64,000 bases of DNA from positions 1,736,001 through 1,800,000 of the forward strand of contig NZ_VLPK01000001.1 in the NCBI RefSeq assembly GCF_007558865.1, read 5' to 3'. The notes beneath the pieces were generated by a model, which saw only the letters and a program-made list of their open reading frames with translations, ran no database searches and was not told the DNA's origin. Made by a program: the position numbers and the translations under genes. This document shows, piece after piece, positions 46,883-59,320 of this stretch. The first letter of the stretch is position 1, and every line of letters begins with the position of its first letter. Source of the stretch: Mucilaginibacter corticis (GTDB lineage Bacteria; Bacteroidota; Bacteroidia; Sphingobacteriales; Sphingobacteriaceae).

Positions 46883-49800
46883 TTATTTTACAAGTGTAAC
46901 ATAACCCGAGAAAGTTTTGAAAAAGAATTTTGGATCTATAACATAGTAATAGGTGCCAAATGGCAATGGCTTGCCATCATACATGCCGTCCCATGGTTTA
47001 CTGTAACCAATGCTGTGATAAATTTTTTGGCCGCTCCTGGTAAATATACTAACGTCGGCTGCGGTATAGGCTATTAAGCCCTGTATATCCCACAGATCAT
47101 TAATACCATCGCCATTAGGTGTAAAGGTATTCGGTATAATAATAGGTGGTGCAACCCTTACTGTAACACTACTGCTTGCAACACAACCCAGGCTATCGGT
47201 TACTGTTAAGGTATATACCCGGTCAACATCGCCGGTTACTGTAGGGTTTTTAAGCGTATTATCGTCAAGCAGAGTATTGGGCTGCCAGTTGTAAGTCACT
47301 TTAGGGTCGCTAACTGTAGGCGTTAACACAACCGTATTTCCTTTTAATACAAACTTAGTATCGCCGGCACTAACAGTAGGCGGTGGTAAGAAAGTTAGCT
47401 TTACCGTATCTGTAGGATAATAGCATGGGTCTGTATTGTTGGCTTTAAGTATGAGTTGAATAGTGCCGCTGGCAATATCGGCAGCGCTTGGATTATAAAC
47501 AGGACTTGCGCCTCCGTTTGCCTGTGCTGCAGATGGGCTAAAGGTACCTGTGCCCGAAGTGGACCACGTGCCATCGCCGGCCATTAATATTTTACCGCTT
47601 AAAGGCACAATAGTGGTCTGTGAGCATATAGGCTGGTCAGGTCCGGCATCCGTGCCCGGTAGCGGGTGAAATTCAATAACGACATCATCTGTTGATATAT
47701 CGCAGTTGTCGGCACTGGTTGATGATAGTGTAAGCGTTACAGAGCCTGCCAAAACATCAGCTGCCGACGGGTTATAGATTCCTTTTAAATTTGCCGGATC
47801 GGGTAGTACACCATTACCCTTGGTAACAGACCATTGGCCGGTTGTTGTACCGCCTGATACGCTGCCATCAAGTTGTACAGCTGTGGCAAGCTGGCAAACG
47901 GTTTGATCAGGCCCTGCGTTTGCCACGGGTAGTGCATCGATAGCTACATCAACAGTTGAAGACACACTTGAACAATCATTTGATACTATAGTTAAAGTAT
48001 AAGTACCGGCATTAGCTACAGTAGCATTATCAATAGTTATAGTTGGATTTGGTGATGACGATGTAAAGCCATTTGGGCCGGTCCACGAGTAAGTACCACC
48101 AACGGGAGCTATTGTAGAGGTACTTAAAGTTATTGTCTTGCCTGTACATACCGGGCTATTGGAGGTAGCCTTTGGTGTTACCGGTTGCGGATTGACTGTT
48201 ACGATGTAAAGAAAAGGAACGTTTTGACAGCCGTTAGTAATTGTGTAGATTAGATAATATACGTTGACAGGTTTAAGGGTAGTGTTGATTAAAGTTTCAT
48301 CAATGACGTTTGAAACTTTACCGGGTTCTGCGGGATTGCTTATACCGTCAAAAGCTTTCCTGCTCCAGCCATAAACAGCAGAGGGTACTGTCGAGGTAAT
48401 TACATAATTTTCCGGTACGCCGCTGCAGGCGGTATTTTTTGGTGCGCTTGTTATAGTAACTGTTGGGTTTACAGTTACCCTAAGTCTGTATGTTGAGCCC
48501 TGGCAATTGCCGTTAGTATAAGTAAAGTCATAAAATACGTCTATCGGCGCGGCAGTGTTATTAAATAAAGTCTCACGTATAGAGTTACTCACCTGGCCCT
48601 TTACAGGCTGGTTTGTAATGCCTGCCACGGCATCGCGGCTCCAGGTTGCAAGAGTACCTGCACCCGGCGTATTAAAAGTAATGGTGAAAACAGGGCTGCC
48701 TGCCGGTGCGGCGACGCCACTACATACTATTGGATGCGAGGTAGTGGTATCATTGGTAACTATAGGTGTAGGATAAACCGTAACCACGTAGTTAACAGGC
48801 GGACCGTCACAACCATTTAAGTGGGGAGTAATAATATAAGTTACATTTACCGGGACGGTAGCTGTGCTTATTAAAGATTCTGTAATAGAGGATGCGGGTA
48901 CATTAGTTACCGCCGGGTTATTGATGTTAGTTGTTAAATTACGTGTATAAGTGAACGTAGTGTTTTGCTGATCTGCCGTGATGGTATAATTTAATGCATT
49001 ACCACTACAAACATTATCTATTAGCGGGCTTGTTACATTTGGTAAGGCGCTTATATTTACATCAACCCTTGTGCGTGTAGCACTGGCACAACCTGTGCTG
49101 TTGACCGACTCTACATAATAAGTAGTGTTGGCTGTTAAAATTCCGGTAGTTAGGGGTGTTGTTATATTAGAAGCAAAGGCGCTACCACCTGTAGGTACAG
49201 TATACCAGCTATACCCCCCCGTTGAACCATGTGCTGTAATTGTAGCCTGTGTGCCGGGACATATGGCCGCAACCGGATCAACTGTCGGCGGGTCAGGCAA
49301 TGGGTTAACGGTTACTTGGAAAGCTGTACGGGTGCTGGTTACACCGGCAACTGTTGCCTGTACGTAATAGGTGGTAGTAATAGTTGGCAATATGGGGTAA
49401 TTAGCACCTGTAAATAAAAGAGTGCCTGCTGTAGGGGCGTCATACCATTTTAATGTAGCGCCTGCCGCTGCTGTTGCAGTTAATGTAACAGGCGTTCCCG
49501 CACATATAGGTAATGTCGCTGGTGTAGCATTAACCCCAGGGGGTGCAGGTTGCGGGTTAAATCTAATAAAGACGGTATTGCTGTTTATTAAACAAGGCGC
49601 GGCTGGTGCAGTAAGCGTAAGTGTAACGCTGGTTTCACCTGGACCAGGAGTATACACTGCGTTTAGCGCGGTAGTGCTTGAAAAAGATCCGGTGCCGCCG
49701 CTCCATGTTCCTGTTGCGCCGCCAGGTACGCTGCCTGCCAACTGTACCGGGGTACCTGTTGCAACAATTTGATCGGGGCCGGCATTTACATTTGCTGTTG

Positions 49801-52285
49801 GCGTTACAGTTAATGTAGCTGACGAGGCAGCTGTTGTGCAACCAACTATACCGTCTATGGTATTGGTTATGGTGTATGTGCCGGGTTTACTGTTTGACAA
49901 ATCAACATAACCTGCAGTTGGGTCACTAAAAACTAAGCCTGCGGGACTTGCTGTAAAAACCCCTGCGCTACCGGTTGGATTTGTGTAAACAGGTTTAGGC
50001 ACGCCGCTGCAATAAGTATCCGGACTGTAAGAAAAAGCAGGATCAGGGCTGGTAACAATGTTGATGGTCCGGGTGGTTATTGCACAGCCATTAGTGTAGG
50101 TTACCGTATATGATCCTAAAGGTGTGGCAGTGACATCTATTCTTCCGGTAGCAAGATTGATCACTAAACCGGCAGATGCGCTGAAGGCACCGCCGGGCGC
50201 ATTTATAACCGGCACAGGGTTTATACCGCCAAGCTTGCAATAAGTGCCCGATGCATAAGAAAATTGATTGCCTGAAAGTACGGTAACTGTAACGGGTTTG
50301 CGTTCGCTTTCGCAGGTGCCGTTAGTAGCCGATACATAATAAGTTGTTGTTTTTGATAATGTAGCCGTAGTATAAGTGCTGCCATTTCCTCCTGTAAATA
50401 TCGGGGTAGGGTTGGTTGCATCAGCATACCAGAATATGTTAGTTGCCCCTGTACTCGTAGCGGTTAGCATAGCTTTACTGCCCGAACATATACTGGTAGC
50501 GCCGGTTATAGTTGGCTGGGGTGGCAAGGCGTTTACAGTTGCCGTTACCGCCTTTCGCGGGCTTAAACAACCGTTAGCATCGGTGGTTTGTACGTAGTAA
50601 GTTGTGGTATTGGTTAATGAGGATATAGACAATGTGCTATTACCGCTAAGCTTTGTGCCTCCGGTTGGGGCATCGTACCATTCTATACTTACACCTGTGC
50701 CGATAGCCGTAAGCGTAACCGGTGATCCTGCGCAAACAGCCGGCGGGCCTATAGCAGTTGGAGCAGCCGGCGGGGCGTTAATGTTTACCGTTACCGGTGT
50801 ACGGGTGCTGCTGCAACCGTTAACCGTAGTTTGTACATAATAAATAGTAGTTGCAGTAAGTACGGGCGTAGTAAAAGTTGATGGGTCCGTAGCGGGATTA
50901 ACCAATGGAGTACCACCTGTAGACGTAGTGTACCAATTAAATGTGGCGCCTGCGGGGCCGGTGGCAGTTAAGGTTGCTACGTTGTTTGAGCAAATTGTTA
51001 CATTAGGAACCACCGGTGCAGCCGGGGCAGGGTTTACAAGTATGTTTATAGGTTTTCGCCCGCTAACACACCCGCCGGCGCTTACAACTTCTATATAATA
51101 GGTTGTAGATGCAGTTAAATTACTAATTGTATAAGTGTTACCGGTTGTAAACGGGTTGAAACTGTTAGCGGTAGCATACCATCTATAGGTACCGTTGGCT
51201 GGTGCGGGCAGATTTATGGTTAGCGGAGTGCCAAAACAGCCGGAAACATCTGTAAGTACCGGATCTGCAGGAATTGGGTTTATAGTAACAGTTACAGCGG
51301 TTCTTGAGCCTATACAATCGCCTACTGTGGCTTGTACATAATAAGTTTTACTTGAGGTTAACGCAGGTGTAGTAAAATCAGGGCTTGAAATTAATGACGT
51401 ACCGCCTGTTGGTACATCAAACCAATCAAATACAGCATTAGTTGGTCCGCTGGCATGCAGCGTAGCGCCAGAGCCAGAACATGTGCTTACTCCCGGTGCA
51501 TTTGGCGGGGCCGGCGAGGTGATAACAGTAGCCGTAGCAGTTGTTGGTAAGCTAACGCAGCCTGCGGTTATACCTATAACATAATACTTTGTAGTAACAA
51601 AAAGTGAAGGCGTTGTAAATGTAGCGGTTGTACTTAAAGGTGTACCTGTACCTGCCGGATTATCATACCATCTGTAATCTCCGGCGCCTGATGCGGTTAA
51701 AGTTACAGAAGAACCCGCGCAGGTTGAGGCCGTAGTTACACTCGGTCCGGATATGGGGAAAACATTAACTGCTGTGCGTGAACTGGTACAGCCATTAACT
51801 GTAGTTTCTACATAATAGGTTGTTTTTTGGGTAATTACGTCTGTTGTAATGGTGGCGCCCGTGCCTTTAAGATTACCACCCGTGGCAGCATCATACCACT
51901 GGTAACTGCCTGTTGATCCGCTGGCAGTAAGGGTGGTAGTAGTGTTAGGGCAGGTAATAGCATCAGTTGCCGTTGGCGCTGCCGGCGTAGGATTAGCAAT
52001 TAACGTAATGCTTTTACTTACACCCGGGCAGCTTCCGTTTTGGTCGGTTACGGTAACGGTGTAAGGTATACCGGTTTTATTAGCGCTTATGGTTTGTGTT
52101 GTCTCACCAGTACTCCATGCATATTTGTAAGGAGGCGTACCGCCCGAAACATTCGCCGTTAAAACCGCGGCAGTGCCATTACAGATTGAGGTTGTTGATG
52201 CTGTCAAATTTACAGTCACTGTACATTGGCCGTATATCCGGGCAGAAAACACCAGGAGAAGAAAAAACAGCAGTTTGTACTTCAT
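46883..52285 (-). CDS. Giant Ig-like repeat protein with T9SS type B sorting domain
   Basis: 1800-residue cell-surface protein. A signal peptide (MKYKLLFFLLLVFSARIYG) precedes at least nine Ig-like modules of about 80 residues, each with a CxGxxxxLTA strand, a WYDAPTGG turn and a TTYYVQTTVNGC strand (seven in residues about 80-680, two more near 900-1070). Further Ig/PKD-like segments with VNAGPDQ motifs follow. The C-terminal 90 residues (PNTFTPNGDGINDLWDI ... WDGMYDGKPLPFGTYYYVI) are the gliding-motility type B domain recognised by the type IX secretion system. Likely an adhesin or extracellular matrix protein. Confidence 0.93.
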   Translation of the reverse strand: MKYKLLFFLLLVFSARIYGQCTVTVNLTASTTSICNGTAAVLTANVSGGTPPYKYAWSTGETTQTISANKTGIPYTVTVTDQNGSCPGVSKSITLIANPTPAAPTATDAITCPNTTTTLTASGSTGSYQWYDAATGGNLKGTGATITTDVITQKTTYYVETTVNGCTSSRTAVNVFPISGPSVTTASTCAGSSVTLTASGAGDYRWYDNPAGTGTPLSTTATFTTPSLFVTTKYYVIGITAGCVSLPTTATATVITSPAPPNAPGVSTCSGSGATLHASGPTNAVFDWFDVPTGGTSLISSPDFTTPALTSSKTYYVQATVGDCIGSRTAVTVTINPIPADPVLTDVSGCFGTPLTINLPAPANGTYRWYATANSFNPFTTGNTYTISNLTASTTYYIEVVSAGGCVSGRKPINILVNPAPAAPVVPNVTICSNNVATLTATGPAGATFNWYTTSTGGTPLVNPATDPSTFTTPVLTATTIYYVQTTVNGCSSTRTPVTVNINAPPAAPTAIGPPAVCAGSPVTLTAIGTGVSIEWYDAPTGGTKLSGNSTLSISSLTNTTTYYVQTTDANGCLSPRKAVTATVNALPPQPTITGATSICSGSKAMLTATSTGATNIFWYADATNPTPIFTGGNGSTYTTATLSKTTTYYVSATNGTCESERKPVTVTVLSGNQFSYASGTYCKLGGINPVPVINAPGGAFSASAGLVINLATGRIDVTATPLGSYTVTYTNGCAITTRTINIVTSPDPAFSYSPDTYCSGVPKPVYTNPTGSAGVFTASPAGLVFSDPTAGYVDLSNSKPGTYTITNTIDGIVGCTTAASSATLTVTPTANVNAGPDQIVATGTPVQLAGSVPGGATGTWSGGTGSFSSTTALNAVYTPGPGETSVTLTLTAPAAPCLINSNTVFIRFNPQPAPPGVNATPATLPICAGTPVTLTATAAAGATLKWYDAPTAGTLLFTGANYPILPTITTTYYVQATVAGVTSTRTAFQVTVNPLPDPPTVDPVAAICPGTQATITAHGSTGGYSWYTVPTGGSAFASNITTPLTTGILTANTTYYVESVNSTGCASATRTRVDVNISALPNVTSPLIDNVCSGNALNYTITADQQNTTFTYTRNLTTNINNPAVTNVPASSITESLISTATVPVNVTYIITPHLNGCDGPPVNYVVTVYPTPIVTNDTTTSHPIVCSGVAAPAGSPVFTITFNTPGAGTLATWSRDAVAGITNQPVKGQVSNSIRETLFNNTAAPIDVFYDFTYTNGNCQGSTYRLRVTVNPTVTITSAPKNTACSGVPENYVITSTVPSAVYGWSRKAFDGISNPAEPGKVSNVIDETLINTTLKPVNVYYLIYTITNGCQNVPFLYIVTVNPQPVTPKATSNSPVCTGKTITLSTSTIAPVGGTYSWTGPNGFTSSSPNPTITIDNATVANAGTYTLTIVSNDCSSVSSTVDVAIDALPVANAGPDQTVCQLATAVQLDGSVSGGTTTGQWSVTKGNGVLPDPANLKGIYNPSAADVLAGSVTLTLSSTSADNCDISTDDVVIEFHPLPGTDAGPDQPICSQTTIVPLSGKILMAGDGTWSTSGTGTFSPSAAQANGGASPVYNPSAADIASGTIQLILKANNTDPCYYPTDTVKLTFLPPPTVSAGDTKFVLKGNTVVLTPTVSDPKVTYNWQPNTLLDDNTLKNPTVTGDVDRVYTLTVTDSLGCVASSSVTVRVAPPIIIPNTFTPNGDGINDLWDIQGLIAYTAADVSIFTRSGQKIYHSIGYSKPWDGMYDGKPLPFGTYYYVIDPKFFFKTFSGYVTLVK

Positions 52286-52484
52286 ACTAAACAACAACTA
52301 ATAAGGCGTAAAAATTCACAAATAATAATATCAGCTACTAAAACCTAAAAATCAATACGGTAGAGTATTTAGATCTGTTGGTTATTAAACATTAGTCGTT
52401 ATACGAATAACCCGGTAATAAAGGTTTACCCTTATTTTGTTTATTTGCAAAAATAGCTACGGATCACTGTAATAATTAACAAAT

Positions 52485-54914
52485 TTACAGTTTTACCTGC
52501 AAAGTTATATAATATCCTCTGGCATCGGCAGGAATTATGCCCGGCCCCGGATAGCTTTCTGCACGCCGGGTAAAGTAGCGTTTATCAGCCAGGTTATTAC
52601 ATGATCCAAGTATGGTGAATGTATTGTTAAATTTATAGCTGGCAGAAAGGTCCATAACGGTATAGGCCGGGATTATCCCGATGATCCCGTCAGCAGTGGG
52701 GCTTGGCGCATTTGTGGCATCGCCATACTGCATACTGGTATATGATACCTGGTAGCTGGCGGTAAATTTACTTTGACGAAAAGTTAAACCGCTTTTTAAC
52801 ACAACATCAGGTGCAAACTCTACTATCTTGCCATCAAAAGAATGATCTTTTGAACTGGTGTATTTAGCATCTATCAATGCCAGATTGCTAAATACAGATA
52901 GTTTGGTATCTGATACATTGCCGGTTATAAAATGAAGAAACTCCAGTTCGGCAAATGATTCTAAACCGATATTTCTTGAAGCGCCAATGTTGGTACGATA
53001 ACGAAATGTATTGAAACTAGCGTCCGACTCTTCTTTGCTGCCTATTCTGTTATCGTAATGGATCATAAATAAGCTAACATCATAATCCAATACGCCGTCT
53101 ATATTACCTCGGATCCCGGCATCGGCTGAATAACCGGTTTCATCCTGTAAATTAGGATCAACCTTTAAGCCCGGTATAGCTGAATTCAGGTCATTAAAGT
53201 TAATGGCCCTATAGTTTTGCGATATGTTGGCATACAATTGTATGGCTCGGTTTTGGTAATAACTAAACCCTAAACCACCAATTAAAAAATGCCTGTTGCT
53301 GTTCTTATTGTCGACACTGTCTTTACGATAATAAATATTTTGGGCCTGATCTTTCCTTACGTCTACAAAAGATCCGGTAGCTTTGGTAATTACATTCTCA
53401 AACCGTAAGCCAGGGATAACACTAAATTTAGGCGTTATGCGGAATATATTCTCGGCAAAAAAGGCAAGGTTGTAATTAGGGAACTTGTAATGCGAGTAGC
53501 CATTTACATCATCTTCAGACGTACCATAGGTAAAATCGTTACTGTTACCTGTTGATGCATTATTGCCAAACCCCTGCTGCCGGTCGGTGTGGCCGTTATA
53601 ATATCTTACCCCAACCAACAAGTTTTGCGCGTTACCGCCTAATTTATAAGTGTACAGTAAACGGCTTTCGTTGCCATAATTTTTATAATGATCTACATAA
53701 AGGTTTCTGTCGCCGTTAACGTTGGTAACATTGCTGTAATTAATTTGCCCCACAGCATCCCTGCCTGCATACAAACCAAAAAAGCGCGAGTTAAATTTCA
53801 GGTTATCATTGATCTTATAATCGACAATTGCTGCCCCTAAATTCCAGTTTACCTTAAACCAGTTGCGCGCCCTGGTAGATTGACGCGGATCATCATAAAA
53901 TTGATTATCTGTTAACCCGCCCGGCTGTTGCTCAAGGTAGTTCATGTAGGTGTACTGCAAGGTAATGGCAAACTTATCGCTTGCCTTATAAGTTACAGAA
54001 GTATAGGCAGTATTATCATTAAAATGCCCGTTTGGCCGCCATCCGTCGCCTTGTTTATGCTGGTAGTAGGCATAGTACTGCACTTTTCCCGTTGTGCCGC
54101 CAATGCTTGTAGCAGTATTAAAGAAATTCCATGATCCGGCAGTTTCATTAGCAGTTATTTCAAAGGGTTTATCTGTTGCCCCTTCTCTCAATTTAAAATT
54201 GATGATACCGCCAAATTGTGTACCATATTGCAGTGATGACGCCCCGCGCAATATTTCTATCCGGTCTGTTAACTCGGCAGGAGGGGTATAGTAACTTTCA
54301 GGGTAGCCCAAAGCATCCGCGCTGATATCATAGCCATTTTGACGTGTATTAAAGTTTGTTACCCGGTTAGGGTTTAGTCCGCGGCCGCCTATGCCCAACT
54401 GGATCCCCGCGCCATCGCTTTCCCAGATGTTCAAACCTGCAACTTTCGAGTAGATCTGCCGGGTATTGTTGGTTGCTTTGTTGGCGGTGATATCGTCCAA
54501 TACAATCACCTCGCTTTTTTTGCCGGCGGTAATGGTGGTGCCTTCAACGGCTTTCATCCGCGTAACGCCGAATGTTTTTTCTTTAGCGGTTTTTACATCA
54601 ACGTTTTTAAGCTCCTGTACGTCATCTACCAAAATAATATTGACGGTTATATCATGTTCAACGCTGATGTTGTGCGTAGCCGGCTTATAGCCAACCGCAG
54701 TTGCCGTTAATGTGTAACGGCCTTTTGATATGCTTAACTGAAAATTACCGGCGGTATCGCACCGGGTGGCATACGATGTGTTTTTTAACCGTACACTTGC
54801 GTTTGGTACGCCCTCGCCCGCTGTAGTTTTAACTGTGCCGTTTATGGTTAAGTTTTGCGCGGATAATCGGAAAACGCTGATCAATAAGAAAGAGAGTATA
54901 TATAGATATTTCAT
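52485..54914 (-). CDS. TonB-dependent receptor with carboxypeptidase-like N-terminal domain
   Basis: 809-residue outer-membrane receptor. Signal peptide (to LSAQN), a carboxypeptidase-regulatory-like beta-sandwich (residues about 22-105, INGTVKTTAGEGVPNASVRL), a plug domain (about 125-245, ending IEILRGASSLQYGTQFGGII) and a barrel ending with FxxxYYITLQVKL-type aromatic residues. The plug and barrel resemble FecA-like iron receptors. Its start overlaps the HTTM stop as ATGA, so it is the last gene of a translationally coupled four-gene operon, suggesting uptake of iron or another metal. Confidence 0.93.
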   Translation of the reverse strand: MKYLYILSFLLISVFRLSAQNLTINGTVKTTAGEGVPNASVRLKNTSYATRCDTAGNFQLSISKGRYTLTATAVGYKPATHNISVEHDITVNIILVDDVQELKNVDVKTAKEKTFGVTRMKAVEGTTITAGKKSEVIVLDDITANKATNNTRQIYSKVAGLNIWESDGAGIQLGIGGRGLNPNRVTNFNTRQNGYDISADALGYPESYYTPPAELTDRIEILRGASSLQYGTQFGGIINFKLREGATDKPFEITANETAGSWNFFNTATSIGGTTGKVQYYAYYQHKQGDGWRPNGHFNDNTAYTSVTYKASDKFAITLQYTYMNYLEQQPGGLTDNQFYDDPRQSTRARNWFKVNWNLGAAIVDYKINDNLKFNSRFFGLYAGRDAVGQINYSNVTNVNGDRNLYVDHYKNYGNESRLLYTYKLGGNAQNLLVGVRYYNGHTDRQQGFGNNASTGNSNDFTYGTSEDDVNGYSHYKFPNYNLAFFAENIFRITPKFSVIPGLRFENVITKATGSFVDVRKDQAQNIYYRKDSVDNKNSNRHFLIGGLGFSYYQNRAIQLYANISQNYRAINFNDLNSAIPGLKVDPNLQDETGYSADAGIRGNIDGVLDYDVSLFMIHYDNRIGSKEESDASFNTFRYRTNIGASRNIGLESFAELEFLHFITGNVSDTKLSVFSNLALIDAKYTSSKDHSFDGKIVEFAPDVVLKSGLTFRQSKFTASYQVSYTSMQYGDATNAPSPTADGIIGIIPAYTVMDLSASYKFNNTFTILGSCNNLADKRYFTRRAESYPGPGIIPADARGYYITLQVKL

Positions 54915-56284
54915 TGTTGTGTGCTATTAAATGGAATGATCCATTTTTTATGGTCCAGCAGTGTTTCCTGTTCTTTGGCAAGGTTTACGGTGCTGTCAAT
55001 ATATAAGCGGCTGCCGCTGCCGTTTAAGGTTACATAACTATCGGCGGTTACTATGGGGTTGTTGATCCCCTTTTTTTGATATTCGGCGGCCAGGTGATGC
55101 GCAAACTGCAAGATCATGTCCGGCTGTGTAGCCATCTGGCTTTCCTGGAAAGTGGTTAAATATTGTGAGTTGATGATCTCTGATCGTTTGCCTGTTTTGG
55201 AGTCTTTTACATAAAAAAATATGGTGCCGCCTTTGTCCATCAGCATTACGCGCCATGAAAAGCGGTAGCCTTCTTCCGTCCAGTATAATTTACCGGGGTA
55301 CAGCATAAACCTGAATGGCAACAGCAGTTGTATGATAAAGTGCAGGGCCAATACCGTATAAATAAATTGTGTTTTAAATACAGGCAGATGATAATCTTTA
55401 TTTGAAGTATAATGCTTGCTTTTGGGCAAAAAATGTGTTAATAAATTGACTATACGGATATGTGTTTTTTCTGAAAAGAAAACAATGGTAACACATATCA
55501 TGATGTATGGGAACATGCCTATCTTAAACAATACCGCTGTTGACAGGTGGAAGATAATGACCAGTGCATAGGCCCATTTACGGTATCGGCCATCTAACAG
55601 CAAAAAGCCGATAAAGAGGTCGAATATCGCCCCAAACCAGCTAAAGGCGTAGGCTACCCATGTTTGTGTGAGTAAACCGCCTATAACAGGCATTTGGCTG
55701 TTGGCCGGTAGCCAGATCTTAAGCGGCATAGCTGCTATGAGCCAGTCGTAATTTAATTTTGAGATACCCGCGAAAAAGTAAACCAGTACCAGTTGCATCT
55801 TAAATATATTAATGGTCCATGCCGGTACGCGGGTTACAGCAATTTTAGGCCTTAACTTGGTATCGACAGAAAAATAACGATGAGCAGGTACCCAGATCAT
55901 TAAAAAAGCCATTACACTTATAAAGTAGTAATGGTTTAAATAGGTGGTTTTATCAAGCAGCTCTACATAAGTAAAGCATAAAAAGAAAGTAATGATTGCC
56001 GCCCTGTAAAACAAACCGATGGTTACCATTATTGCTGCTACGGTCAGTATAGCAAACAACACGTACATACCCGCGCCGGCAGGTGGTTTTACCCAGTCAA
56101 ACCCGTAAAAAGTAAAATGGAATTGCGGTTTTATGTAGAAAGCGTAGACCCACCCCTTTAGTATAAACCTGATGGTGCTAACAAGCATAATGCTCCCAAA
56201 TGCTATCCTGAGGACAGAAAGGGGAGCAATATGTACTTGCGCTTTTACAAGCGATGAAAAATTAAGCTTTACAGAACCGGGCAT
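54911..56284 (-). CDS. HTTM-domain membrane protein
   Basis: 457-residue protein with an HTTM domain (horizontally transferred transmembrane domain, related to vitamin K-dependent gamma-carboxylase): about eight membrane helices with SVLRIAFGSIMLVSTIRFI, then FFLCFTYVELLDKTTYLNHYYF and VYFFAGISKLNYDWL. A soluble C-terminal part of about 150 residues follows. The bacterial function of HTTM proteins is not established. It begins three bases after the imelysin-like gene and overlaps the TonB receptor start, so a role in the same metal-uptake process is inferred. Confidence 0.9.
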   Translation of the reverse strand: MPGSVKLNFSSLVKAQVHIAPLSVLRIAFGSIMLVSTIRFILKGWVYAFYIKPQFHFTFYGFDWVKPPAGAGMYVLFAILTVAAIMVTIGLFYRAAIITFFLCFTYVELLDKTTYLNHYYFISVMAFLMIWVPAHRYFSVDTKLRPKIAVTRVPAWTINIFKMQLVLVYFFAGISKLNYDWLIAAMPLKIWLPANSQMPVIGGLLTQTWVAYAFSWFGAIFDLFIGFLLLDGRYRKWAYALVIIFHLSTAVLFKIGMFPYIMICVTIVFFSEKTHIRIVNLLTHFLPKSKHYTSNKDYHLPVFKTQFIYTVLALHFIIQLLLPFRFMLYPGKLYWTEEGYRFSWRVMLMDKGGTIFFYVKDSKTGKRSEIINSQYLTTFQESQMATQPDMILQFAHHLAAEYQKKGINNPIVTADSYVTLNGSGSRLYIDSTVNLAKEQETLLDHKKWIIPFNSTQQ

Positions 56285-56287
56285 TGT

Positions 56288-57388
56288 TTAGTCTCCGTCG
56301 TTATCGCCGAAAGTAATAGCAATGCCTAACGCTTGTGTCATGTCTGTTTTTAACATCACTGTTAATTTTTGCAGCTCGGTATAACTTGCGGTTACTGCGG
56401 TAGGGTTGCTAATAATGTTTGCAGATAATGGGTCGGTTAGACCTTGTAATTTTGTTGCAGCGGCGCTGAACTGTGTTTGTATACGGGTATTAAGCGCAGT
56501 GTTGTTTGCAGATATCAAATAGTCGTCAAGCCCTAAGCCTGTAGCGCCGTTATATAGATTTTGTATCGCACTCAAATGCAGTTCGGTTAATTGCAAAGAT
56601 ATTTTTGAATAATAGGCCTGAACTTTTTCAGGGAAAGTAGTACCCATTGATTGCGTACCTGCCGGGATACCTATCTCGTAATTTTTCAGGATCTCGTAAT
56701 CATAGATCAGTTGGTTAACCAGTTGACCGGTCGAGCTGCTTACGTCAGTCCCGGTGGCATTTAAAAAGGTAGTTTTATAACTGCCGTTCCAGGCTGCCAA
56801 TACGGTTGTGGCGTTTGTTTTTAACTCGGCAGATAAAGCGGCAAGATAAGTTTTGCGGTTTGCTGCTTTACTGTCAGTTGTGAACTGGGCCAGGATAGCG
56901 GCGTTATCCGCGCCGGTGCCAAATAACAAATAATCAAGCGCGGGCAAACCTTTTGCAGCAAGGTTGGCCAGCAATAATGGGTTATAAGTTCCTGAATTTA
57001 TGTTGGCAGTTATTTGCGTTACACTAACCGGGTAAGTATTGGTATTTACACCCAGGCCAGCATCCTGCGCAGGGCCGAAATTATACATGGATGTTGACTG
57101 CCATTGTTTGTAAGCAGCTATAAAGCTATTTTGTAAAGCAGTTAAATTACCGGCAGTAGGCGTAGTGTTAAATGTGGTGACCGCTGCATCAAGGCTGACG
57201 GTAGCATCATGGTATGATGTGTAAGCCGGAATGATAATGTTACTGCTGATATTTACTAGCATGGCTTTACGATCAAACGATGAGCCGGTGTTGGTGTTTT
57301 TTGATCCGCCGTCTGATGATTTTGAGCAGGATTGGATCAGTAAAAAGGTAGTAGCGGCTGTTAATGCCAGGTAGATGATCTTTTTCAT
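56288..57388 (-). CDS. Imelysin-like lipoprotein (peptidase M75 family, HxxE absent)
   Basis: 366-residue lipoprotein (lipobox LIQSC) of the imelysin family, helical periplasmic proteins tied to iron uptake (relatives of EfeO). WQSTSMYNFGPAQDAG and KGLPALDYLLFGTG match conserved regions, but the usual GxHxxE metal motif reads GLPALDY here: His is Pro and Glu is Asp. It may therefore bind metal differently or serve as a scaffold. Second gene of the DUF4856-imelysin-HTTM-TonB operon. Confidence 0.9.
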   Translation of the reverse strand: MKKIIYLALTAATTFLLIQSCSKSSDGGSKNTNTGSSFDRKAMLVNISSNIIIPAYTSYHDATVSLDAAVTTFNTTPTAGNLTALQNSFIAAYKQWQSTSMYNFGPAQDAGLGVNTNTYPVSVTQITANINSGTYNPLLLANLAAKGLPALDYLLFGTGADNAAILAQFTTDSKAANRKTYLAALSAELKTNATTVLAAWNGSYKTTFLNATGTDVSSSTGQLVNQLIYDYEILKNYEIGIPAGTQSMGTTFPEKVQAYYSKISLQLTELHLSAIQNLYNGATGLGLDDYLISANNTALNTRIQTQFSAAATKLQGLTDPLSANIISNPTAVTASYTELQKLTVMLKTDMTQALGIAITFGDNDGD

Positions 57389-57465
57389 GGTTTGCTATTT
57401 ACAGTAAAACCATCCGTACGTTTTAAGGTGCGGATGGTTAACTTGATTAATGTTTTCTTATTTAA

Positions 57466-58566
57466 TTATAATATGTCCTTCACGCTGTCAAAATCATATT
57501 GTTTAGCAACAGCATCTCTTATGGCGTTAACGTCAGTTAATGTCAGATCGTAAAAGGTTTTCGGGAACAGCGCCAGGAAAGCAGCTATCTGCGCGTCGGT
57601 AACTACTTTCTTAGGGTTGTATTTTAATGAGTTAACAAATCCGTAGCACTCAGATAAACGGCTATTTCTTGCCATGTTATCGCTGATAGATTCTTTAACT
57701 TCCTTAACTTCCTGTAAAGCGGCAGCACCGGTTAATTTTTCCATTGCTGTGATAATGATCTTAGCTTGTGCAACAAATACAGGTTTGTCTTTAGCGCTGA
57801 TTGCTGCACGGCCTTTTAAGAAAGCATCCATCAGGATCTTGTTGGCTTTAAAGCCAGAGTCGACCTGTGTGCTGTAGCTACCCCAAAGTTTAGCGCCGGT
57901 TTTGTTGGTAGGGAAATCAACAGGAACGCCCCAGTAACCAAAAGCAAGGTCCCAGGCATGCTCCATTGCTGTCGAACCATTAACTACAGTAGTGTTGTCA
58001 ATGGTTTGATTAACAACGTTATCCATAGTAGTAACTATCTGGTAAGTAATTAAACCGCCCATAAAGTTTTTGTTAAATACTTGCGCGTAGTTAACACCAA
58101 GGCTTGTTAAGGCATATTTAGATGCAGCGTTGGCAGAACTTGCACCAACACCTGCTACACCACGGCTTGCCGCTGTTGAAGCTGCCGCGCTTGCTTTAGC
58201 CAGGCTGTCAATAAAGTTACTTGCATCTGTTTTAAATGCAGGTGCAAACTGATCATTAAGCTGGATACCTGAAGTATTGTAAGCCGCAGTTGTAAAAGGT
58301 GCACCTGTATTGGTAAGCATGGCTTTTGCTTTTGCAGCATCAAAAGTACCGGTAAGCGCGTTTTTCATTAACGTTGAAATTTCTGTGTACATGCCCAGGC
58401 GGGTTGTAGCGTCAGCAAAATTTGCGTTGTCGAAATTGTATGTTGTTGGTACGGTATAAACCGGCGCCGGATCAACCGGGGTAGGCGTTTTGTCGTTTTT
58501 ACTGCAACCGGTTATCACCGAAGCTGCAATGGTTAAGGCACAGGCTATTGATAGATATTTTTTCAT
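57466..58566 (-). CDS. DUF4856 lipoprotein
   Basis: 366-residue lipoprotein: MKKYLSIACALTIAASVITG then Cys (lipobox ITGC), a Pro/Thr linker, and a helical domain with FDNANFADATTRLGMYTEI near the N-terminus and AMEHAWDLAFGYWGVPVDFP in the middle, characteristic of DUF4856. Members often occur beside imelysin genes, as here, and the HxW/WGxP segment may bind a metal; this is inference. ATG 58566 is chosen from the lipobox and the promoter at 58593. First gene of the operon. Confidence 0.9.
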   Translation of the reverse strand: MKKYLSIACALTIAASVITGCSKNDKTPTPVDPAPVYTVPTTYNFDNANFADATTRLGMYTEISTLMKNALTGTFDAAKAKAMLTNTGAPFTTAAYNTSGIQLNDQFAPAFKTDASNFIDSLAKASAAASTAASRGVAGVGASSANAASKYALTSLGVNYAQVFNKNFMGGLITYQIVTTMDNVVNQTIDNTTVVNGSTAMEHAWDLAFGYWGVPVDFPTNKTGAKLWGSYSTQVDSGFKANKILMDAFLKGRAAISAKDKPVFVAQAKIIITAMEKLTGAAALQEVKEVKESISDNMARNSRLSECYGFVNSLKYNPKKVVTDAQIAAFLALFPKTFYDLTLTDVNAIRDAVAKQYDFDSVKDIL

Positions 58567-58592
58567 GATGTTTTGATTTTGTTTATCTGTCG

Positions 58593-58623
58593 CAAAAGTA
58601 CCTTCACCGATTATAGTGGACAA
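58593..58623 (-). promoter_or_regulatory. Promoter of the DUF4856-imelysin-HTTM-TonB operon
   Basis: Minus strand: TTG (58621-58623), a 20-base spacer, TACTTTTG (58593-58600). The leader to ATG 58566 would be about 20 bases. An upstream ATG at 58623 lies in the promoter and is rejected. Confidence 0.7.
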
Positions 58624-58639
58624 TACCCCCTCGGGGGTA
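58624..58639. promoter_or_regulatory. Palindrome next to the -33 element
   Basis: TACCCCCTCGGGGGTA, arms TACCCCC/GGGGGTA, abutting the TTG of the operon promoter. A likely regulator site (activator position), although it could also act as the hairpin ending the upstream response-regulator transcript. Confidence 0.6.
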
Positions 58640-58661
58640 ATTTGTAATTAGTCTAAATAAA

Positions 58662-59288
58662 TTAATATTTTTGTAAAAGGGCGGATAGCTCGGCTGTGTT
58701 TTTAAAGGTAAAGCCCAGCTTTTTGATGATGTTTTTACGATGGGTCTTAATGGTATGGATACTCAGAAAAAGTCTTTCGGCAATATCTTTATTGGTTAAA
58801 CCGTCAGCTATCAGGCGAATAAGTTCACTCTCACGCGATGATAATTGGGGCAGGGTATCATCTTTTTCGGCAATCAGTTTATTGCCGAAAAGTGTTTCAA
58901 AAGTGTTTTTGCAGAAAAATTGTTCACCTTTGGCTGTCGAGTAAATGGCACGCACCAATTCTTCGCGGCTGCATTCTTTAAAGACATAGTTTTTAATACC
59001 AAGATCGATCAATTGCAATACTTCAGTGCGATCATGCCGGTTTGATAAAATTAAGATCCGAGTAGCCGGGTATTTTGCCTGTATGGCTTTAACATGATCA
59101 ACAGTAAATTTTTGATTATAGTTAGGATCAAATATAATAACACGGGGTTGATGTTTATTGATCAACTCATCCAGCTCGATAAAATGCATTGCATTGCCCG
59201 CAATATTCATATCTAAAATATCGGCCAGCATAGCTTTTATACCCTCGCGGGTCAAGATCTGATTATCGGCAAGTAAAATATCAATCAA
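58662..59288 (-). CDS. NarL/LuxR-type response regulator
   Basis: 208-residue response regulator: receiver domain (residues 1-120) with acidic Asp8, phosphoacceptor Asp54 (IIFDPNY) and Lys at FKE, then a LuxR-type HTH (about 145-205, LSSRESELIRLIADGLTNKDIAERLFLSIHTIKTHRKNI). The usual DD pair is Asp-Asn (ADNQ). The start is TTG 59288. No histidine kinase is adjacent, so it is an orphan. It lies 95 bases upstream of the metal-uptake-type operon in the same direction and is a candidate regulator of it. Confidence 0.93.
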   Translation of the reverse strand: MIDILLADNQILTREGIKAMLADILDMNIAGNAMHFIELDELINKHQPRVIIFDPNYNQKFTVDHVKAIQAKYPATRILILSNRHDRTEVLQLIDLGIKNYVFKECSREELVRAIYSTAKGEQFFCKNTFETLFGNKLIAEKDDTLPQLSSRESELIRLIADGLTNKDIAERLFLSIHTIKTHRKNIIKKLGFTFKNTAELSALLQKY

Positions 59289-59320
59289 TGTTATTTAGTC
59301 TAATTCTAATTAATGATACG

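What the first reader, a model, noticed from the sequence alone, without database searches (positions are those of the whole stretch)
52485..58639. DUF4856-imelysin-HTTM-TonB operon: a probable metal-uptake system with an HTTM protein at its centre
Four tightly packed genes (gaps of 77 and 3 bases, then an ATGA overlap) encode two lipoproteins, an HTTM membrane protein and a FecA-like receptor. Imelysin-family proteins and such receptors are tied to iron; the role of HTTM in bacteria is unknown. Coupled translation of HTTM and receptor implies joint function, for example ligand modification or inner-membrane transfer.
Basis: partly seen in the sequence, partly recalled or inferred. Interest (0 to 1): 0.65.

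Follow-up and report, generated by a model that had tools for sequence, protein, structure and literature searches.

The report
Iron-uptake operon with vitamin-K carboxylase homologue
A soil bacterium carries a widely conserved, iron-repressed gene cluster for taking up iron, and the 'unknown' membrane protein in its middle is a close structural relative of the human vitamin-K clotting enzyme with its catalytic residues intact, so the old question of what bacteria use this enzyme for can be tested directly.

Summary
In detail: four minus-strand genes at 52485-58566 encode a DUF4856 lipoprotein, an imelysin (M75) lipoprotein, an 'HTTM' membrane protein and a FecA-like TonB receptor. Three points go beyond it.

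(1) The HTTM protein is a homologue of vitamin K-dependent gamma-carboxylase (VKGC/GGCX). It has the HTTM and lumenal domains and superposes on human GGCX (Z 31.7, 442 residues). Catalytic Lys218, His160, Asn159 and most of the menaquinone pocket are kept in 126-128 of 128 operon homologues.

(2) Gene order is conserved: 48 of 64 VKGC loci in 247 Bacteroidota genomes lie beside imelysin and/or DUF4856; 37 have all four genes.

(3) A 19-bp Fur box precedes the operon (at least 15/19 matches in 84% of 117 loci versus 3% of 460 control regions). The window has two such sites, both here. In Riemerella anatipestifer the equivalent operon is published as iron- and Fur-regulated.

Best explanation: a Fur-controlled iron-acquisition system containing a menaquinol-dependent VKGC-type enzyme of unknown substrate. 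Glu carboxylation of an operon partner is plausible but undemonstrated: I found no invariant, VKGC-specific glutamate in the two lipoproteins and no VKOR in this genome. A C-terminal 'DGD' first taken as a VKGC tag proved general to IPPA imelysins.

The parts
57466..58566 (-). DUF4856 lipoprotein, distantly FEA1-related; first gene of the four-gene operon
   Evidence: PF16148 102.9 bits; weak NF038033 FEA1_rel_lipo E 2e-4, 26 of 49 homologues match it; AF2 pLDDT 93.5, mostly helical
56288..57388 (-). Imelysin (M75) lipoprotein of the IPPA/PA4372 type, ending in DGD-COOH
   Evidence: PF09375 144.5 bits; matches 3pf0 (IPPA) from residue 38 to its C-terminus; tail invariance
54911..56284 (-). Vitamin K-dependent gamma-carboxylase (GGCX) homologue ('HTTM'): TM domain plus first lumenal domain; K176=K218, H118=H160, N117=N159, Y340=Y395
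   Evidence: PF05090 272.6 and PF22777 180.9 bits; human GGCX E 4e-35; Z 31.7 over 442 residues; residue table
52485..54914 (-). FecA-like TonB-dependent receptor with an N-terminal CarboxypepD_reg domain
   Evidence: FecA is the nearest solved structure, E 3e-24
58640..58658 (.). Fur-box-like operator ATTTGTAATTAGTCTAAAT, between the RR stop codon and the DUF4856 start
   Evidence: 16/19 to the Riemerella box; same site conserved in 84% of 117 loci at >=15/19
59293..59311 (.). Second Fur-box-like site, just upstream of the response-regulator ORF
   Evidence: box 14-17/19 at the equivalent position in 10 of 10 related loci
58662..59288 (-). NarL/LuxR-type response regulator, syntenic with the operon in Mucilaginibacter, Pedobacter and Spirosoma relatives
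   Evidence: PF00072 and PF00196; present in L100-L108 and L112
57389..57465 (-). Intergenic hairpin between DUF4856 and imelysin (stem CCATCCG...CGGATGG), possible partial terminator or mRNA-stabilising element
   Evidence: sequence; MFE -16.2 kcal/mol; many related loci have a different strong hairpin here, median gap 79 nt

Best explanation
This is a Fur-repressed iron-acquisition operon found widely in Bacteroidota and relatives. When iron is short, Fur leaves the operators and the genes are expressed. A FecA-like receptor brings a ferric ligand across the outer membrane. Two lipoproteins, DUF4856 (distantly FEA1-related) and an IPPA-type imelysin, bind or relay iron. The 'HTTM' protein is a VKGC/GGCX-type enzyme of the inner membrane whose active site should face the periplasm. 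It takes reduced menaquinone, deprotonates it with the conserved Lys and reacts it with O2 to form a strong base. That base most likely carries out a post-translational modification, GGCX-like Glu carboxylation being the default guess, on an operon partner, raising metal affinity or allowing maturation. Shown here or in print: gene order, homology, intact catalytic residues, Fur boxes, and Fur and iron regulation of the Riemerella counterpart. Inferred: cofactor use, topology, enzyme activity, the nature and identity of the substrate, and the role of each lipoprotein.
For: Iron: Fur box >=15/19 in 84% of 117 operon upstream regions versus 3% of 460 control regions and 0.9% of shuffles; two sites in the 64-kb window, both here; the Riemerella operon RAYM_09779-09794 (TonB receptor, 'vitamin K-dependent gamma-carboxylase', imelysin, hypothetical) has iron-restriction ratios of 2.1-3.1 and is listed as Fur-regulated (PMC5609570); FecA homology; Fur itself is encoded. 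Enzyme: GGCX alignment and fold; D153, N159, H160, A214, K218, W223, F286, H287, F299, W390, W399 and M402 kept in 128/128, G259 in 127, F294 in 126, Y395 as Y in 105 and F in 23. In GGCX K218 is the catalytic base, N159/H160/Y395 hold the substrate Glu and MK-4 hydroquinone sits in the same pocket (PMC12589487). Menaquinone supply: an MqnC-like gene at 427.0 bits (cut-off 428.1) points to the futalosine route. Joint function: conserved order and overlap; imelysin is the most constant neighbour.
Against: No acceptor Glu was identified: no Glu of the imelysin is both invariant and VKGC-specific, and E306 of DUF4856 (115/115) is also kept in two of three VKGC-less relatives. Substrate-binding features of GGCX are altered: N158 to L, R436 to Q/M, H404 mostly to M, C99/C450 lost, K217 to A/S, and everything beyond human residue ~510 (rest of the propeptide claw, Arch) is missing. 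No VKOR in this genome and no VKOR-VKGC association in the phylum (11 of 56 VKGC+ versus 47 of 191 VKGC-). From memory, the Leptospira orthologue epoxidises but does not carboxylate. Regulation was measured in another genus. The own-genome MqnC hit is just under its cut-off.
Confidence: 0.6

Rival explanations
1. The VKGC homologue is a menaquinol epoxidase or oxidase without carboxylase activity; the base or the O2-dependent redox step serves iron release, reduction/oxidation or oxidative chemistry, filling the place that a di-haem peroxidase-like protein holds in other imelysin operons.
For: Catalytic base and quinone pocket kept but the Glu-backbone contacts and the 393-404 region diverge. 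IPPA-type imelysins occur in two operon types, ICMP-DHOR(di-haem)-IPPA (G182, G187, G108) and DUF4856-IPPA-VKGC-TBDR, and most VKGC-operon genomes lack the ICMP-linked DHOR. Imelysins are said to be almost always tied to such peroxidases (PMC3143127). Leptospira precedent from memory.
Against: The Glu-side residues N159, H160 and Y395(F) are also kept, which a pure quinol epoxidase would not obviously need; no haem or iron-binding motif was identified in VKGC.
Confidence: 0.25
2. The VKGC-type enzyme modifies a small-molecule iron ligand (for example a carboxylate xenosiderophore or ferric citrate) in the periplasm to release iron.
For: FecA-like receptor; enzyme and receptor genes overlap.
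Against: Solved family members act on peptide Glu residues; FecA R438 is not kept at the receptor in the alignment; no evidence on ligand identity.
Confidence: 0.1
3. VKGC is only co-regulated; the iron role rests on the receptor and lipoproteins, and VKGC does something else under low iron.
For: A second VKGC clade in Flavobacteriaceae sits between ribF and serS, outside any iron operon; some operon loci lack the receptor.
Against: Tight conservation of the imelysin-VKGC pair across genera; operon VKGCs have their own signature residues (T290, V401, L158).
Confidence: 0.12

Closest known systems
Vitamin K-dependent gamma-glutamyl carboxylase (GGCX), human
   Same: Same fold over residues ~31-510 (Z 31.7), same catalytic Lys, His, Asn and most of the quinone pocket
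   Different: Ends near human residue 510: rest of the propeptide claw and Arch domain absent; K217, N158, R436, H404 and the C99-C450 disulfide changed; bacterial, inside a Fur-boxed operon, no VKOR in the genome
Riemerella anatipestifer RAYM_09779-09794 (PMC5609570)
   Same: Receptor, VKGC, imelysin and hypothetical protein as neighbouring loci; induced by iron restriction, listed as Fur-regulated
   Different: Only transcriptomics; the VKGC is not discussed there; no response-regulator gene listed with it
Fur-regulated imelysin operons PA4370-PA4373 / Leptospira lruB operon (ICMP, di-haem protein, IPPA)
   Same: IPPA-type imelysin, iron regulation, TonB receptor nearby in Leptospira (PMC3143127, PMC13066512)
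   Different: Di-haem (DUF1111/DHOR) protein and an ICMP-type imelysin instead of VKGC and DUF4856
FecA ferric-dicitrate receptor, E. coli
   Same: Homologous from plug to barrel end (E 3e-24)
   Different: Far below the FecA equivalog cut-off (108 versus 1100 bits); citrate-ligand arginines only partly kept
FEA1-related lipoproteins (NF038033)
   Same: Weak partial match in 26 of 49 DUF4856 homologues, best E 8e-8
   Different: Far below cut-off (19.9 versus 250 bits for the window protein)

Membership tests
VKGC/HTTM superfamily | HTTM transmembrane domain (PF05090) plus VKGC lumenal domain (PF22777) | tested here: met
   272.6 and 180.9 bits, both over cut-off 27.7; 37 of 37 homologues
VKGC/HTTM superfamily | GGCX fold | tested here: met
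   Foldseek E 9e-21, TMq 0.81; VIA Z 31.7, 442 aligned, rmsd 3.2
VKGC/HTTM superfamily | Catalytic base K218 and Glu-pocket N159, H160, Y395 | tested here: met
   K218, N159, H160 128/128 each; Y395 Y105/F23
VKGC/HTTM superfamily | Quinone pocket A214, W223, G259, F286, F294, F299 | tested here: met
   126-128 of 128; M401 and N290 are V and T
Animal-type protein gamma-carboxylase (GGCX) | Complete propeptide-binding region (PBD-1 plus PBD-2) and Arch domain | tested here: not met
   Window protein ends at the position of human residue ~510
Animal-type protein gamma-carboxylase (GGCX) | Carboxylates Glu to Gla with vitamin K hydroquinone | not testable with these tools
   needs biochemistry
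Animal-type protein gamma-carboxylase (GGCX) | VKOR partner for the vitamin K cycle | tested here: not met
   No PF07884 match in own genome; no association in 247 genomes
Imelysin superfamily, IPPA/PA4372 type | Peptidase_M75 domain with variant (His-less) GxxxxE-like motif | tested here: met
   PF09375 144.5 bits; window has G147-LPAL-D152, Asp in place of the Glu; match to 3pf0 through its C-terminus
DUF4856 | PF16148 above gathering score | tested here: met
   102.9 versus 22.3 bits
FEA1-related lipoprotein NF038033 | Score above the equivalog cut-off | tested here: not met
   19.9 versus 250 bits
FecA equivalog NF041676 | Score above the equivalog cut-off | tested here: not met
   108.1 versus 1100 bits
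Imelysin superfamily fold for DUF4856 | Confident structural match to an imelysin | tested here: inconclusive
   3n8u Z 5.9, Algp7 4.8, 3pf0 4.7, EfeO 4.1: within helical-bundle noise
Fur regulon | Fur-box operator upstream | tested here: met
   58640-58658 and 59293-59311; phylum-wide conservation
Fur regulon | Iron- and Fur-dependent expression in this organism | not testable with these tools
   shown only for Riemerella (PMC5609570)

The most novel reading that the evidence does not exclude
Bacteria use menaquinone-dependent gamma-carboxylation (Gla or a related carboxylated residue) on a cell-envelope iron protein: a vitamin K-dependent protein modification outside animals, with an iron-uptake role in place of calcium binding.
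Probability: 0.27. Interest if true: 0.88.

Novelty: new variant of a known kind. Interest (0 to 1): 0.62.

Why it matters
Bacterial homologues of the vitamin K carboxylase have had no settled role. Here one with an intact catalytic core is tied by gene order and by a conserved Fur operator to iron acquisition in a large group of bacteria, many of them culturable (Flavobacterium, Pontibacter, Mucilaginibacter, Hymenobacter). That gives the enzyme a physiological setting, an inducing condition and a short list of candidate substrates (three operon partners), so the question can be settled by mass spectrometry of two or three proteins.

Tried and rejected
(a) The C-terminal DGD of the VKGC-linked imelysins as a VKGC recognition or modification tag: rejected, because IPPA-type imelysins without VKGC beside them (3pf0 from Psychrobacter; L182, L184, L187) end the same way. 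It is also not a ribosome-binding-site effect, as codons and spacing vary. (b) An operon Glu that is invariant and VKGC-specific: none found in DUF4856 or imelysin; the receptor was not compared with non-VKGC receptors. (c) A vitamin K cycle through VKOR: no association. (d) Classical menaquinone route in this genome: MenB and MenD below cut-off; the futalosine MqnC-like gene is 1 bit under cut-off. (e) DUF4856 as an imelysin fold: imelysins appear in the VIA list but at noise-level Z. (f) Literature on the system under DUF4856, HTTM or bacterial Gla: none of the papers found treats the operon as a system; only the Riemerella Fur table lists it. Flavobacterium psychrophilum and F. columnare iron papers do not mention it. 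(g) The search for papers citing the Leptospira VKGC study found nothing in the library, so that study is cited from memory.
Full report
OBSERVATION. The four genes are present as described, on the minus strand and transcribed DUF4856 -> imelysin -> HTTM -> TonB receptor, with gaps of 77 and 3 bases and a 4-base overlap. The window lies in a 5.3-Mb genome with a single HTTM gene. Its VKGC is 87% identical to that of a Mucilaginibacter MAG, so the host is probably a Mucilaginibacter.

WHAT THE HTTM PROTEIN IS. Pfam finds two domains, HTTM (272.6 bits) and VKGC_lumenal_dom (180.9 bits). A sequence search of the PDB returns human vitamin K-dependent gamma-carboxylase, E 4e-35, aligned over query residues 19-451. 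An AlphaFold2 model (pLDDT 88.8, pTM 0.89) superposes on GGCX complexes with Foldseek E 9e-21 and VIA Z 31.7 over 442 residues. It ends at human residue ~510 of 758, so the rest of the propeptide-binding claw and the Arch-like domain are missing.

ACTIVE SITE. The roles of GGCX residues are taken from PMC12589487: K218 is the base, K217 structural, N159/H160/Y395 hold the Glu side chain, N158/R436 its backbone, and F286/F294/F299/H160/V210/M401/W223 plus A214/G258/G259/V254/V255/N290 the quinone. Across 128 operon VKGCs (first seen in 48) K218, H160, N159, A214, W223, F286, H287, F299, W399 and M402 are invariant, G259 is kept in 127, F294 in 126, and Y395 is Y in 105 and F in 23. Changed are K217 (A/S), N158 (L), M401 (V), N290 (T), H404 (mostly M) and R436 (Q/M). 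So the catalytic core looks able to make the quinol-derived base and to hold a carboxylate, while backbone recognition of the substrate differs. A second VKGC clade outside iron operons (in Flavobacteriaceae between ribF and serS) also keeps K218 and H160 but has His at 395.

CONSERVATION. PF22777 occurs in 56 of 247 evenly drawn Bacteroidota genomes, giving 64 loci: 48 with M75 and/or DUF4856 upstream on the same strand, 37 with all four genes. A GTDB scan gave at least 570 relatives; of the best 80, 56 have all four genes and 71 have DUF4856-M75-VKGC. All the taxa named in the 80 records belong to Bacteroidota, Balneola/Fodinibius or Rhodothermaceae (one record is labelled only 'bacterium'). 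VKGC and receptor genes overlap or lie within a few bases in most loci. Same-genus genomes in the sample (G099, G214) lack VKGC, so distribution inside the genus is patchy.

IRON. In Riemerella anatipestifer RAYM_09779-09794 (receptor, 'vitamin K-dependent gamma-carboxylase', 'putative lipoprotein imelysin', hypothetical) show iron-restriction ratios of 2.11, 2.64, 3.07 and 2.41 and are listed among Fur-regulated genes (PMC5609570). I did not check that RAYM_09794 is DUF4856; its position fits. That paper's 19-bp Fur box was used as an independent probe: at least 15/19 matches upstream of DUF4856 in 84% of 117 loci, against 3% of 460 control upstream regions in the same loci and 0.9% of shuffles. 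In the window a relaxed box (up to 3 mismatches) occurs at two places only, 58640-58658 and 59293-59311, just before the DUF4856 and response-regulator genes (4 strand-hits versus 0.76 expected, 0 of 100 shuffles). Ten related loci with the regulator have a box at 14-17/19 at the same place before it. Caveat: the probe comes from Riemerella Fur-regulated promoters and is palindromic, so the two strand-hits at one site are not independent.

PARTNERS. The receptor's nearest solved relative is FecA (E 3e-24); ligand-site comparison is inconclusive. The imelysin is of the IPPA type and matches 3pf0 through its C-terminus. DUF4856 has a confident, mostly helical model with no clear PDB relative and a weak, sub-threshold match to FEA1-related lipoproteins. 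Imelysins usually travel with di-haem peroxidase-like proteins (PMC3143127). In this phylum the long DHOR genes sit beside ICMP-type imelysins, whereas most VKGC-operon genomes lack that pair. The suggestion that VKGC takes the redox-enzyme place in this operon type is inference.

TESTS OF THE CARBOXYLASE IDEA. No Glu in the two lipoproteins is both invariant and specific to VKGC-linked members. VKOR is absent from the genome and not associated with VKGC in the phylum (11 of 56 versus 47 of 191), so any epoxide would have to be recycled otherwise or simply replaced. Menaquinone is probably made by the futalosine route: an MqnC-like gene scores 427.0 bits against a cut-off of 428.1, while MenB and MenD are not found above cut-off. 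From memory (not in the library): the Leptospira VKGC orthologue was reported to epoxidise vitamin K without detectable carboxylation, and SdpB of Bacillus, an HTTM protein, is needed for maturation of a secreted peptide.

VERDICT. The iron-uptake reading is well supported (about 0.9), retention of VKGC catalytic chemistry likely (about 0.75), Glu carboxylation of a partner open (about 0.27). The operon is widespread and partly visible in earlier annotation, so it is not a new kind of system. The conserved link of an intact VKGC core to a Fur operator was not described in the papers I could search.

Noticed in passing
56288-57388 (C-terminus); 3pf0; L182, L184, L187: IPPA-type imelysins end exactly in Asp-Gly-Asp-COOH: 120 of 121 in the VKGC-linked set (one DAD), and also members without VKGC; none of the ICMP-type imelysins checked does. 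Residues 384-389 of 3pf0 are disordered and 'DGD' does not occur in the text of PMC3143127. Function unknown.
   Followed up: partly
57389-57465 and equivalent gaps in L100-L127: A hairpin of changing sequence lies between DUF4856 and imelysin in many loci, suggesting that DUF4856 is made in excess of the downstream genes.
   Followed up: partly
58624-58639: A palindrome TACCCCCTCGGGGGTA directly abuts the Fur box; conservation not checked.
   Followed up: no
L032, L033, L036, L042, L043, L045, L046 and others: A second VKGC clade in Flavobacteriaceae, often directly after ribF and near serS, keeps K218 and H160 but has His for Y395; no iron context.
   Followed up: partly
G000:C10:47018-49353 (L196): The same genome also has a separate ICMP-type imelysin next to a di-haem (DHOR) gene, so two imelysin systems coexist.
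   Followed up: no
58662-59288 and L100-L108, L112: A NarL-type response regulator with its own Fur-box-like site precedes the operon in Mucilaginibacter, Pedobacter and Spirosoma relatives but not in most other loci; no cognate histidine kinase was sought.
   Followed up: no
46883-52297: A 1804-aa repetitive secreted protein with a gliding-motility-type C-terminal sequence (FTPNGDGINDLW) lies downstream of the operon.
   Followed up: no
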